From the NCBI RefSeq assembly GCF_015482765.1, contig NZ_JADMLB010000071.1:1-64000 (forward strand): DNA of 64,000 nt, in the 5' to 3' direction. The stretch is from Halodesulfovibrio sp. (GTDB lineage: Bacteria; Desulfobacterota; Desulfovibrionia; Desulfovibrionales; Desulfovibrionaceae). Within the stretch, counting starts at the first letter, position 1, and each line of letters begins with the position of its first letter. A program made the position numbers and the translations under genes. Below, piece by piece: positions 7,365 to 56,028 of the stretch. The notes beneath the pieces are model-generated. The model did not search any database. It was not told the DNA's origin and saw nothing but the letters and a program-made list of their open reading frames with translations.

Positions 7365-7418
7365 CGAATGCGACCGAAATGAAGACAGTATAGTTGTGAA
7401 CTTAGGGTAAGTTATTAA

Positions 7419-7450
7419 AAAAGCGGCACGGAGTTTTCCGTGCCGCTTTT
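7419..7450. terminator. Bidirectional intrinsic terminator
   Basis: A 12-bp perfect stem (AAGCGGCACGGA / TCCGTGCCGCTT) is flanked by A-run and T-run. It serves both the YjdF-like gene and the convergent arsR-permease operon. Confidence 0.9.
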
Positions 7451-7466
7451 TATGTTTGATCGTGTT

Positions 7467-8684
7467 TTAAATGAGAATGTTGAAGAGGAACCCGACGAGA
7501 AGAATGCCTGATGCAACAATTGCTACGTAAATTGAAATCAATTTTACACTGAGCACTTTTCTGAGGATTACCATTTCAGGAAGGCTCAAGGCGACAACAG
7601 ACATCATAAACGCCAGCGCGGTTCCTAGAGCAGCTCCTTTACCGAGCAATGCAGATACAATTGGGATAATTCCAGCTGCACTTGCATACATTGGAACACC
7701 AATAATAACAGCGGCCGGAACGCTCCACCATGCTTCTTTACCCATGATTGAAGCCATAGCGCCTTCTGGAACATACCCGTGAATACCAGCGCCGACGGCA
7801 ATACCGATAACGATGTAGAGCCATGTTTTACCAATAATATCTACAACAGAGTCCCATGCAAAGTCTAAACGATGAGCAAGGGTCGGGTATGTCGGTGCGT
7901 TGTTGCTTCCATCATCACGGATTTGTTTAACCCATGGTTCAAGCATGTCATCAAGCTTCATTTTGCCAAGTACCCAGCCTGCGATAACTGCAATAGTAAC
8001 TCCGGTAACCAGATACAATGCGGCAACTTTAAAGCCGAAGAGACCGTACAGAAGAACAAGCGCAATTTCGTTTACCATTGGTGCGGCGATAAGGAACGAG
8101 AAGGTAACGCCAAGTGGGATACCTGCGGCAACAAACCCTAAGAAAAGAGGAACAGCGGAACATGAGCAGAATGGAGTGATGATGCCTACACATGCTGCAA
8201 TTACGTTCCCGAGTGATTCTCTTCCGCTAAGGTATTTGCGGCTTCGTTCCGGTGTGATCCAAGTTCTCAGTACGCCAACTCCAAAAACGACAAGGCTGAG
8301 CAGCAGTAAGATTTTTGGAGTGTCATACAGGAAGAATTTTACGGATTCATAAAGATGGCTTCCCTTTTCAATTCCCGGAATAAGTCCTGTCAGAGTTTCT
8401 GCAATAAGAGGAAGTTGGGAGTATAACAGCGCCCATCCGATTAATGCAATAGTGCCGACGATTGCGTAAAAAGAAATAGAAAAACGTGGCTCTGTTCCTT
8501 GAGAAGGTGCTGCTCCGCAAGCGCAAGGGGATTCAAAAGGATTTTCAGGAATATTTCCTTCCTGTTTAGGTGCTCCAAAAGCCTGGGCAGCGAACTCGCC
8601 GCCTTTATTTGGGTTTCAGCCGTAGATTGAGCAGGAGCTTTTTTCTTCTTCTTTTTTTTGTGGTGTAATTTCGAGCGGTTTCAT
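7467..8684 (-). CDS. ArsP-type (DUF318) permease with in-frame UGA, predicted selenoprotein
   Basis: Read through the TGA at 8616-8618, this is one 405-aa protein from the ATG at 8684 (GAGGG ribosome site). Codon 23 is UGA in the context SCSIYG-Sec-NPNKGG. The frame is open from there to the stop, and the part after the UGA has no start codon or ribosome site before residue 203. About 60 cytoplasmic residues hold two Cys clusters (SCS at 17-19 and CACG near 55-58). About eight membrane helices follow, with the DUF318/ArsP hallmark TPFCSCSAVP. Family members export trivalent organoarsenicals or other soft metals. It lies 13 bases after an ArsR-type repressor with a CxC metal site. An ordinary annotation would call only residues 203-405. 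Sec could bind or reduce a metalloid; the substrate is unknown. Confidence 0.8.
8574..8615 (-). promoter_or_regulatory. SECIS-like hairpin 3' of the permease UGA
   Basis: On the mRNA, 12 nt after the UGA begins an 8-bp stem: GGCGGCGA pairs with UCGCUGCC (8586-8603) around an apical GU. An outer stem CCAAA/UUUGG flanks it through an internal loop, for a total of about 40 nt. Bacterial SECIS elements place the apical stem about 11 nt after the UGA with a GU in the loop, and this fits closely. No other role for such a stable hairpin inside the coding region is evident. Confidence 0.7.
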
Positions 8685-8697
8685 TTCTATACCCTCG

Positions 8698-9039
8698 TTA
8701 AAGGATGTTTTTAGCTTTTTTTAAAGCAACAAGATTTTTTTGTAATACCATAGATTCGCTGTCTGTTGCGATTGCTTGCTGCAACAGATTAAGAAAAGAC
8801 GTTATATATAACTCAGTGCTGCTAACTGCTAGGCTGTAATGCGTCCATCCACCTGCTTTTCGGGCTGTTGTCAGTCCGGCGTCTGTACACTGTTTTAAAT
8901 GACGGGAAATCGTTGGCTGGGATAAGCCCATAATCTCCACAATATTGCATACACAAAGTTCTCCTTCCAGCAGTAAGCCAAGAATTCGGACTCGCGTGGG
9001 GTCTGATAGTGCTTTAGTTATTTTGATGAAATCATGCAT
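8698..9039 (-). CDS. arsR: ArsR/SmtB-family metalloregulator
   Basis: From the ATG at 9039 (GGAGG ribosome site 6 bases upstream) the product is 113 aa. The winged helix spans about residues 8-85. ELCVCNIVEI (about residues 27-36) is the alpha3 metal site (CxC), as in As(III)/Sb(III)-sensing ArsR proteins. IMGLSQPTISRHLKQC is the recognition helix, with another Cys at its end. ArsR proteins repress their own operon and leave DNA on binding the metal(loid). It is the first gene of the operon and is followed after 13 bases by the selenoprotein permease, so the permease is expected to be metalloid-induced. Confidence 0.93.
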   Translation of the reverse strand: MHDFIKITKALSDPTRVRILGLLLEGELCVCNIVEIMGLSQPTISRHLKQCTDAGLTTARKAGGWTHYSLAVSSTELYITSFLNLLQQAIATDSESMVLQKNLVALKKAKNIL

Positions 9040-9051
9040 ACGTCCTCCTGA

Positions 9052-9091
9052 ATACACATTTAGCAATATGGCTATATGTGTATGTTGTCAA
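9052..9091 (-). promoter_or_regulatory. arsR promoter overlapped by a 32-bp operator palindrome
   Basis: On the minus strand a perfect -35 TTGACA (9086-9091) is followed, 17 bases on, by TATTGC (9063-9068). The spacer and -10 lie inside an inverted repeat at 9052-9083 with arms ATACACATTTAGC and GCTATATGTGTAT, 12 of 13 positions matching around a 6-base centre. Repressor binding there would block RNA polymerase, the usual ArsR autoregulation. Confidence 0.75.
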
Positions 9092-9228
9092 TGGGGTTTC
9101 ATGAGAAATGTCCGACTGTACAGTTGCGGATAAAGGGCGTATGAACTTCGGCTAGTATCTGTTGTTTACATGTGTATTCAGTGCAACAGTTTGAAATGAT
9201 AAGCTAAGTTTTTTTGTAGAGGAGATGA

Positions 9229-53331: not shown

Positions 53332-56028
53332 ATGAATACCTTAGAATTGACCATTAATGGCAAGGTGTACGCGTTCACGCAAGGGGAAACCATTCTTGAT
53401 GTGGCACGCAGAAACGACATTTTTATTCCAACCCTGTGTTATTTGAAAAATGCTTCACCAACGGGCGCATGTAGAATGTGTGTTGTTGAAGTAAAAGGTG
53501 CAAGATCGCTTGTTGCTTCATGTACAGCACCTGCGGGTGCTGGAATGGACGTGCAGACCGAGTCCAAATCTGTTGTGAAGTCTCGCAAGATGAATTTGGA
53601 ACTGCTGCTTTCTTCCGGCTCGCATGATTGTCTTTTGTGTCCTTCAACAGGTGATTGCCGTCTGCAGGATTTAGCGTTTCGCTACAATGCAACCGGTAAA
53701 CGTTTTGAACGAACCAAGCCGAAATATCAGCCAGATTTTTCAAATCCATTTTTAATCCGTGATTTTTCAAAATGCATTTTATGCGGGCGTTGTGTGCAGG
53801 CATGTAAAGAAGTGCAGGTTAACAATGCCATTGATTATGGATATCGCGGAAGTGACGCTAAAATTATTGCAAAATGTGATTTGCCGCTGGGCGATTCAGA
53901 CTGTGTTTTCTGTGGTGAATGTCTACAGGTTTGCCCTGTGGGTGCATTGAGCTTGAAGAAAGCACGACAGAAGCCACGTGTGTGTGAAACCGAAGTTGTG
54001 CGTACTACTTGTGCGTATTGCGGTGTCGGCTGCCAGATGAATCTGCATGTAAAAGATAATGTTGTGCAGATGGTTAACGGGGTGGATGCGATCCCGAACC
54101 ACGGAAGCTTGTGTGTAAAAGGGCGTTTTGGAATGCAGTTTATCAACTCTGATGAACGGTTAAAGACGCCTCTTATACGAAAAAATGGTGAACTTGTTGC
54201 GGCTGAATGGGGCGAAGCTCTTAGCCTTATCGCAGAAAAATTAGGTGAATATAAAGAAAAAAATGGAGCGGATTCGATAGGTGTTCTTGCTTCCGCTCGA
54301 TGTACAAATGAAGAAAACTACCTTTTTCAAAAGTTCGCACGCGCAGTTATCGGGACAAATAATGTCGACCACTGCGCCCGATACTGACACTCCCCTACAG
54401 TAGCCGGTCTGGCTGCTGCATTCGGAAGCGGTGCTGCTACAAACCCGATTGATGACCTGAAAAATGCTGATACAGTATTGATAACGGGTTCTAATATAAC
54501 GGAAAACCATCCTGTTATGGGCGCTGCGCTTAAGCGTGCGATTACACAGCATGGAACAAAACTTATTGTGTCTGACCCGCGTAAAATTGATATTGTGCGC
54601 TTTGCAGATGTATGGCTTCGGGCGCAACCCGGAACAGATGTCATATGGATTAACGCACTTGCTCATGTCATTCTGCGTGATGGTTTACACGATCGGGAGT
54701 ATATTGATGAACGCACAGAAGGCTTCACAGCCTATTCGCAATCCCTTGCGCAGTTCACACCGGAGTACGCAGAGAAGATGTGCGGTATTCCGGTTGTTGA
54801 CCTTGAAAAAGCAGCGCATTTGTACGCAAAAGGAAAGAGTGCCATCCTCTACTGCATGGGAATTACCCAGCATGTAAGTGGTACGGACAATGTAAAAGCA
54901 CTCGCTAACCTTGCCATGTTATGTGGTAATATCGGTATTGAAGGTGGCGGATTGAATCCATTGCGCGGGCAGAATAATGTACAGGGTGCGTGTGATATGG
55001 GGGCACTTCCTGTCACATATCCTGCGTATGGAAAGGTGACAGATGAAACAGTTCGTGCACGTTTTGAAGCTGCATGGAGTGTAACATTGTCACCAAATAA
55101 CGGACTGACATCACGACAAATGTTCGATGCTGTTGACGCAGGAACATTGCAATCAATGTATCTTATTGGTGAAAATCCGGTTGTTTCGCATGCTGACTCT
55201 GCCCACGCAGTGCACTGTTTGGAGAAAATTCCGTTCCTGATTGTGCAGGATATTTTCTTAACTGAAACAGCTAAACTTGCCGATGTTGTGCTTCCAGCAG
55301 CGTGTTTTGCTGAAAAAAATGGAACATTCAGTAACACAGAACGGCGTGTTCAACGTGTTAGAAAGGCAGTAAATCCGCCTCAAGGTGCGCGTGATGATGC
55401 GCAAATTGTCTGTGATATTGCAGCCCAAATGGGAGCCGTGTTGGCACCTGAGGGTGGTACCAATGCAGAAGCAATCTTTAATGAAATGACTTCTGTAACA
55501 CCTTCATATGCAGGACTTTCATACAAAAGAATTGAAAAAAACGGCATTCAGTGGCCGTGTCCTGATGAAAAAAGTGATGGAACTTCTATTCTTCATGCAG
55601 ATAATTTTGTTCGAGGAAAAGGAAAATTCCACCCCGTATCATATGTCGCTCCGGCAGAAGTTGTTGATGAAACATATCCGTTAATACTCACAACCGGCCG
55701 TGTTTTATACCAGTATCATACCGGAACAATGACACGAAAAGCGACGGAGCTGGCAACCAAATCACCTGCCGCCTATATAGAGATAAGCAGTAATGATGCT
55801 AAAAAATACGGAATGAAAGACGGTGATATGGCGAAAGTTTCCTCACGTCGGGGAACGATTCGTGTGACGGTTAAGCTTTCTGAAAAAGCTGTGGATGGAA
55901 CTGTGTTCATCCCGTTCCACTTTGCGGAAGCTGCTGCTAATGTATTAACAAACAGTGCAGAATGTCCTGAGTCCGGTATAGCCGAGGTAAAGGTGTGCGC
56001 TGTTAATATAGAACCAGTCGGTGACTAG
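53332..56028 (+). CDS. fdhA: Selenocysteine formate dehydrogenase, alpha subunit with NuoG-like Fe-S domains
   Basis: Read through the TGA at 54385-54387 the protein is 898 aa with Sec352 in DHCARY-Sec-HSPTVAGL, the active-site signature of molybdenum/tungsten formate dehydrogenases (Sec followed by His). Domains: [2Fe-2S] (about residues 1-80), a His-Cys [4Fe-4S] segment with CLLCPSTGDC, two [4Fe-4S] ferredoxin units (CILCGRCVQAC and CVFCGECLQVC), the pterin-domain cluster CAYCGVGC with a later Cys (about 225-265), then the bis-MGD domain with its C-terminal dinucleotide-binding part (from about 780). It oxidises formate to CO2, or the reverse, and passes electrons to the NuoE/NuoF-like subunits. 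No signal peptide, so it is cytoplasmic. It starts 10 bases after the NuoF-like gene. Confidence 0.96.
54388..54425 (+). promoter_or_regulatory. SECIS element of fdhA
   Basis: Ten bases after the UGA, CAGTAGCC (54398-54405) pairs perfectly with GGCTGCTG (54411-54418) around the loop GGTCT. The E. coli fdhF SECIS has an AGGUCU apical loop at about the same distance, so this is a very good match. Confidence 0.9.

What the first reader, a model, noticed from the sequence alone, without database searches (positions are those of the whole stretch)
7467..8684. Predicted selenoprotein permease in an arsenic-type operon
An ArsP/DUF318 permease is interrupted by a single in-frame TGA at codon 23. I checked codon by codon that the frame is otherwise open from the ATG at 8684 to past residue 203. 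The upstream 22 codons start with a good ribosome site directly after arsR, while the part after the TGA has no start signal for about 180 codons. The TGA is followed at 12 nt by an 8-bp hairpin with GU in the loop. The residues around it (SCSIYG-Sec) look like a soft-metal or redox site. I recall no described selenocysteine form of this permease family. A cytoplasmic selenol beside a CxC-regulated exporter could capture or reduce arsenic or mercury species before export.
Basis: partly seen in the sequence, partly recalled or inferred. Interest (0 to 1): 0.87.

Follow-up and report, generated by a model that had tools for sequence, protein, structure and literature searches.

The report
Selenocysteine in an arsenic-operon exporter tail
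A membrane exporter gene beside an arsenic-type switch gene, in a bacterium of the sulfate-reducer family Desulfovibrionaceae, very probably puts the rare selenium amino acid selenocysteine into a floppy metal-binding tail, a placement found here in four related species and not seen in the papers searched.

Summary
The ArsP_1/DUF318 frame runs from ATG 8684 to TAA 7467 with one in-frame TGA (8618-8616) and no ATG/GTG/TTG until residue 203. A 7-bp hairpin with an AGUU loop starts 12 nt after it. The genome has selA, selB, selD and tRNA-Sec. The strongest evidence is comparative: 4 of 10 genus genomes keep the TGA although their fourfold sites differ by 54-65%, and the hairpin is nearly frozen in those 4. 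Two orthologues with Gln or Cys there have lost the hairpin. So UGA is almost certainly read as Sec (inferred, not shown by experiment). Sec sits in a disordered, probably cytoplasmic tail; orthologues without Sec carry Cys-x-Cys there. Most likely it is a soft-metal(loid) ligand feeding the exporter. This protein lies outside that branch (101 against 300 bits) and its Sec is elsewhere. I also found a third placement (PGCG-U-P loop) in four SO_0444 genes, absent from the review table. New variant of a known kind.

The parts
7467..8684 (-). ArsP_1/DUF318 permease, 405 aa when the TGA is read as Sec
   Evidence: PF03773 244.5 bits against cut-off 32.3
8616..8618 (-). in-frame TGA, codon 23, read as Sec (inferred)
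   Evidence: same setting in G142, G108, G079
8586..8603 (-). SECIS-like hairpin GGCGGCG-AGUU-CGCUGCC, 19 nt between UGA and apical loop
   Evidence: consensus limits from PMC13188914 Fig. 2 legend
8631..8633 (-). Cys18, partner candidate of Sec23 (C-x4-U)
   Evidence: Cys in 6 of 6 close orthologues
8517..8525 (-). second tail motif, Cys54-Ala-Cys56 of SPCACG, the membrane-proximal CxC common in the family
8160..8168 (-). membrane motif Cys173-Ser174-Cys175 (TPFCSCSAVP)
   Evidence: invariant in 47 of 47 aligned sequences
8692..8696 (-). likely ribosome site GAGGG
   Evidence: sequence
8698..9039 (-). arsR regulator with ELCVCNI (CVC) motif, 13 nt upstream
   Evidence: PF01022 61.9 bits; CVC as As(III)/Sb(III) site is recalled
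9052..9083 (.). palindrome, 16+16 nt, 88% complementary, just upstream of arsR: candidate ArsR operator
7418..7451 (.). 15-bp terminator-like hairpin after the permease
   Evidence: one search lists it on the + strand (2 such sites found, 1.8 expected by chance); on the - strand it is also followed by T

Best explanation
The gene makes a selenoprotein. The SelB/tRNA-Sec system reads UGA at codon 23 as Sec, directed by the hairpin 12 nt downstream (inferred from comparison; about 95%). ArsR with a CVC motif controls the pair (inferred from motif and operator-like palindrome). The product is a multi-helix ArsP_1 exporter preceded by a disordered tail of about 65 residues. The tail carries two thiol modules: Cys18/Sec23 and Cys54-x-Cys56. 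Most likely (about 60%) the Cys-Sec pair binds a soft metal(loid), such as As(III), methyl-As(III), Sb(III) or Hg(II), on the cytoplasmic side and passes it, via the second module, to the invariant membrane Cys-Ser-Cys for export. The ligand, the hand-over and the substrate are inferred; none is shown.
For: Machinery: selA 621.9 bits, selB 389.3, selD 340.9 with one TGA inside, tRNA-Sec 84.6 bits with anticodon TCA; three formate dehydrogenases over the model's cut-off, each with one TGA. Conservation: TGA in 4 of 10 genus genomes, same flanks. Among those 4, 57 of 299 aa-identical degenerate codon columns are codon-identical, against 5 of 6 in the hairpin; of 294 six-column windows the three best, all overlapping the hairpin, score 5 and the next 4 (P about 0.001, not adjusted for choosing the window). 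The one change, GGC to GGT in G142, keeps the pair as G-U. Energies of the 39 nt after the codon are -12.9, -10.3, -12.9, -14.8 in the TGA genes against -4.5 (Gln) and -3.6 (Cys). The four meet the published loop, G, spacing, stem and energy limits; the Gln and Cys genes do not reach the energy limit. Purifying selection continues after the TGA (core pN 0.05-0.07 against pS 0.61-0.74 among the four). Metal logic: CxC or CC in the 75 aa before the core of 90 of 161 homologues with an ATG start, 75 of 84 within the family; the outer module is CCC, CSC, CGC, CGC in G120, G057, G096, G132, which lack the TGA. Positive residues after helix 2 (TPERSRKYLSGR) suggest a cytoplasmic N-terminus; residues 1-62 have pLDDT under 50.
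Against: No protein-level data. The column is Gln in G120, a genome with selA, so Sec is dispensable. Sec is in a variable tail, not a catalytic site. The z-score of the 58-nt fold is only -1.1. G079 has a GTG codon between TGA and helix 1, and this gene has an ATT preceded by AGGAAGGA at codon 45; both are possible weak restarts, though neither is shared by the other TGA genes. With four TGA genes and one changed pair, there is almost no covariation to test. Part of the hairpin's conservation could reflect the conserved peptide GGEFAAQ, though the codon test allows for that. Substrate and direction of transport are guessed from arsR and family.
Confidence: 0.8

Rival explanations
1. UGA is Sec, but the Cys18-Sec23 pair is a redox centre (selenenylsulfide switch or a reductant of the bound metalloid), not a ligand.
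For: C-x4-U and, in G079, adjacent C-U spacing could form a selenenylsulfide; the review says most uncharacterised selenoproteins likely serve redox functions (PMC13188914).
Against: No redox fold is in sight: the tail is predicted disordered. Relatives carry CxC modules there, and G057 has three tandem NPFxSxCGC units, which looks like ligand multiplication. The same review says Sec may act as a metal ligand in SaoB, SaoC and UXX-star proteins.
Confidence: 0.2
2. UGA is Sec, but what is selected is the codon as a selenium-dependent expression valve: exporter made only when Sec-tRNA is plentiful.
For: UGA lies early (codon 23) in a variable tail; Gln occurs in G120.
Against: A conserved Cys accompanies it, and the orthologues without Sec carry CxC in the same module.
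Confidence: 0.07
3. UGA is a real stop: a decayed gene, a sequencing error, or a short leader peptide with restart further on.
For: TGA is a stop in the standard code; weak restart candidates in two of the four genes.
Against: Same TGA in four species with near-saturated synonymous sites; upstream codons 1-22 conserved with in-frame indels; no ATG/GTG/TTG until residue 203 here; purifying selection downstream; hairpin kept only with TGA.
Confidence: 0.03

Closest known systems
Sec form of SO_0444 family Cu/Zn efflux transporter (NF033936; PMC13188914 Table 1, motif UxC, WP_014809615.1)
   Same: A relative in the ArsP_1 superfamily (P0001 matches both models); predicted Sec; metal export. In SO_0444 matches fetched here, 11 of 15 with an internal TGA have it at P-x-P-L-U-SCG in the membrane motif, which fits UxC. 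I did not see WP_014809615.1 itself.
   Different: P0001 scores 101.4 against cut-off 300; its membrane motif is all Cys (FCSCS); Sec is in the N-terminal tail as C-x4-U or CU. The own genome has a separate SO_0444 member without TGA.
SaoE efflux transporter (NF040736) of the Sao selenium-linked system
   Same: Best NCBIfam match; efflux role in a system with selenoproteins (system recalled; SaoB, SaoC, SaoL, SaoP, SaoT, SaoX are in the review table).
   Different: 136.2 bits against cut-off 325; no sao-like gene seen in the ORF lists beside it (not searched for); SaoE is not named in the review.
ArsP methylarsenite efflux permease
   Same: ArsP_1 domain; carries the PXCSCXXXP motif that PMC5552862 (passages) requires of ArsP orthologues; next to arsR.
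   Different: No Sec tail is known to me in characterised ArsP; substrate here untested.
'CU' selenoproteins SaoC, SaoL, HgcA, MbdU in the review table
   Same: Cys-Sec pair at a presumed metal site; the G079 orthologue has PC-U.
   Different: Other protein families; here the pair is in the tail of a multi-helix exporter.

Membership tests
bacterial selenoprotein (UGA read as Sec) | in-frame UGA with coding conservation on both sides in several species | tested here: met
   4 of 10 genus genomes
bacterial selenoprotein (UGA read as Sec) | bSECIS: loop 3-9 nt, stem 4-16 bp, G in first two loop positions, 16-37 nt from UGA, MFE -7.5 or lower | tested here: met
   4 of 4 TGA genes: loop AGUU, 7 bp, 19 nt, hairpin alone -9.3 to -11.9; rule from PMC13188914
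bacterial selenoprotein (UGA read as Sec) | selA, selB, selD and tRNA-Sec in the genome | tested here: met
bacterial selenoprotein (UGA read as Sec) | Cys homologues at the Sec column | tested here: met
   1 of 2 close orthologues without TGA: G057 TGT (Cys), but G120 CAA (Gln); others not alignable there
bacterial selenoprotein (UGA read as Sec) | selenium shown in the protein | not testable with these tools
   needs 75Se or mass spectrometry
ArsP_1 / DUF318 permease (PF03773) | score over gathering cut-off | tested here: met
   244.5 against 32.3
ArsP methylarsenite exporter | PXCSCXXXP motif (rule of PMC5552862) | tested here: met
   PFCSCSAVP at residues 171-179
ArsP methylarsenite exporter | exports trivalent organoarsenicals | not testable with these tools
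   needs transport or resistance assay
SO_0444 Cu/Zn efflux transporter (NF033936) | score over curated cut-off | tested here: not met
   101.4 against 300
SaoE efflux transporter (NF040736) | score over curated cut-off | tested here: not met
   136.2 against 325

The most novel reading that the evidence does not exclude
DUF318-type exporters form a class of selenium-assisted metal(loid) pumps in which Sec has been recruited, more than once, into each soft-metal station along the export path: the N-terminal capture tail (this gene), a Cys-rich loop (PGCG-U-P, SO_0444 branch), and the membrane Cys-Ser-Cys gate (PL-U-SCG). The selenol gives stronger capture of As(III) or Hg(II) in sulfide-rich cells, where thiols are outcompeted.
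Probability: 0.4. Interest if true: 0.72.

Novelty: new variant of a known kind. Interest (0 to 1): 0.56.

Why it matters
The review read here says most characterised selenoproteins have a thioredoxin-like fold with a redox motif (PMC13188914). Here Sec sits in a disordered, Cys-rich tail of an exporter, and natural Sec, Cys and Gln versions exist in sister species. That makes the value of selenium over sulfur for metal capture directly testable. Annotation that stops at UGA would lose the start of this protein.

Tried and rejected
The homologue search in genome contigs (80 of 568 kept) returned no near relative (best 66% identity), so the tail could not be compared there; the family and genus searches solved it. 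An automatic scan of 171 N-termini (some are near-duplicates, 159 distinct among the 161 with an ATG start) flagged five: L101, L102, L103 real; L092 and L223 dismissed on reading (the upstream frame does not look coding). It missed L104 because of a GTG in the tail; L104 was seen. So 4 of 171. TGAs upstream of a usable ATG (L109, L111, L113 and others) were not counted.

Of the NF033936 matches listed, the 15 over the cut-off with a TGA inside were fetched and parsed. The 14 lower-scoring ones with a TGA were fetched too: 7 were parsed, with an intact CSC and a TGA only 258-306 residues after it or none in range; 7 were not parsed by my script and were dropped. end with 'more matches are not listed', so counts from them are lower bounds, and both sampled a larger group of genomes.

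The first structure run, on the single sequence, was poor (pLDDT 47); the aligned run gave 75. Structure comparison: ArsB (10tp_A) ranks first with Z 12.4, 5.2 A, 277 aligned, tied with NaDC1 and NaS1 and below the level the tool calls safe for helical proteins; not used as evidence. Search of solved structures: one match, E 0.64, an artificial repeat protein. The tree leaves the six close orthologues unresolved, so the order of gain and loss is open. One search failed for minus-strand loci and was redone. The second tRNA-Sec candidate (47.6 bits) is tRNA-Ser by ARAGORN. Promoter scan: no site near arsR.

Paper searches for a Sec ArsP/DUF318 showed none beyond the review; apart from papers opened, hits were judged from titles and abstract starts. 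In PMC5552862 the word selenocysteine is only in a reference title. Only open-licence papers are held. One search's terms were mostly homonyms.

Full report
What was checked. The permease frame is as described and is open to the end: 405 residues with one TGA at codon 23. No ATG, GTG or TTG follows the TGA until residue 203, beyond the membrane Cys motif, so a conventional restart would lose several helices. arsR ends 13 nt upstream. The protein belongs to PF03773 (ArsP_1, 244.5 bits) and carries the PXCSCXXXP motif used to call ArsP orthologues in PMC5552862 (passages). It fails the cut-offs of the two NCBIfam branches it matches, SaoE (136.2 of 325) and SO_0444 (101.4 of 300).

Can the cell read UGA as Sec? 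By gene content, yes: selA, selB, selD, itself with one TGA inside, tRNA-Sec with anticodon TCA, and three formate dehydrogenases over the cut-off, each with a TGA. A further formate-dehydrogenase-like gene in this window, TGA at 54385, has a 9-bp hairpin by the same rule.

Is the hairpin a SECIS? It has 7 bp, loop AGUU, and 19 nt from UGA to loop. That meets the limits given in PMC13188914 (Fig. 2 legend, passages). Among 2287 TGA triplets in the window, 13 have such a hairpin, this one included. The energy z-score alone is weak (-1.1).

Comparative test. Ten genomes of the genus are held; all were searched, and 10 of 10 have selA. Eight have an N-terminus that could be read; G151 is cut at a contig start, and G021 has only weak matches (best E 1.7e-9). 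The N-termini read: G000 SSCSIYG-U, G142 SSCSIYG-U, G108 SSCSIHG-U, G079 APC-U; G120 CCCSTSG-Q; G057 CSCSTQC-C; G096 and G132 have GCGCG and SCGCQ. The four TGA genes differ from each other at 54-65% of fourfold sites, so an unselected TGA would not be expected to persist. At 299 amino-acid-identical degenerate columns, 57 are codon-identical in all four; in the six hairpin codons, five are, and the sixth (GGC/GGT) keeps pairing as G-U. No six-column window away from the hairpin scores as high. In G120 and G057, which lack the TGA, changes that include synonymous ones destroy the hairpin (-4.5 and -3.6 kcal/mol against -10.3 to -14.8). This is the pattern expected of a SECIS that is selected only where Sec is used. 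The core tree does not resolve the order of gain and loss.

Wider distribution. In 171 homologous places read at the N-terminus (80; 31, this gene included; 60) only these four have the tail TGA. A CxC or CC motif in the tail is common: 90 of 161 with an ATG start, 75 of 84 within the family. So the Sec module looks like an added, outer copy of a family-wide thiol tail. In G057 the tail has three NPFxSxCGC units.

Relation to known Sec forms. The review PMC13188914 (section 7 read in full; passages elsewhere) lists 'SO_0444 family Cu/Zn efflux transporter, UxC, GenBank annotated'. I searched 395 genomes sampled from the phylum with that model: 297 match, 85 over its cut-off. Of 15 listed over-cut-off places with an internal TGA, 11 have it at the first Cys of the membrane motif (PL-U-SCG) and 4 (G321, G416, G456, G494) in a loop, PGCG-U-P. 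Hairpins follow both kinds, of varying shape and not tested by conservation. G268, one of the 11, has a second TGA in the loop. The loop form is not in the review table. SO_0444 was named from Shewanella mutants that need it under zinc or copper stress (PMC3219624, passages), and a member is induced by Cd and Cu in Nitratiruptor (PMC10092412, passages).

How it likely works. ArsR with a CVC motif and a palindrome upstream of its start suggest induction by As(III) or Sb(III) (recalled from E. coli ArsR). The tail is predicted disordered and, from charged residues after helix 2, cytoplasmic. In 4 of 4 orthologues of the genus that lack Sec and could be read, the outer module holds CxC; with Sec, it holds one Cys and Sec. 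That exchange suggests a two-ligand soft-metal site. Transfer to Cys54/56 and to the membrane CSC is inference.

Neighbourhood. An HD-domain-like hydrolase gene, arsR, the permease and a small membrane protein gene lie together in G000, G142, G057 and G096, the four whose ORFs I listed (hydrolase and membrane protein named by my reading, no search).

Taxon. The family is Desulfovibrionaceae, because the unnamed G160:C18 equals the named record MNUQ01000167.1 in contig length and N-terminus. The genus name was not determined.

Verdict. Well supported as Sec by comparison; role inferred; a new variant of a kind already on record, with natural Sec/Cys/Gln alleles that make it testable.

Noticed in passing
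window 53971-56013 (+), TGA at 54385: Formate-dehydrogenase-like gene with an in-frame TGA and a strong hairpin (loop GGUCU), probably an ordinary selenoprotein; used as a positive control.
   Followed up: partly
L171, L172, L174, L175 (G321, G416, G456, G494): SO_0444-family transporters with a TGA in a loop motif PGCG-U-P followed by a hairpin; this placement is not in the review table.
   Followed up: partly
L106 (G057): Orthologue with three tandem NPFxSxCGC units in the tail, as if thiol modules multiply where Sec is absent.
   Followed up: no
L177 (G268): SO_0444-family gene with two TGAs, one at the membrane motif and one in the loop: possible double-Sec transporter.
   Followed up: no
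L260 (G000:C45:96765-97691): selD on the same contig, with an in-frame TGA, so probably itself a selenoprotein.
   Followed up: no
window 9048-9062 and 9167-9181: Inverted repeat (15 nt, 93%) that repeats part of the putative ArsR operator 104 nt away, towards the divergent gene.
   Followed up: no
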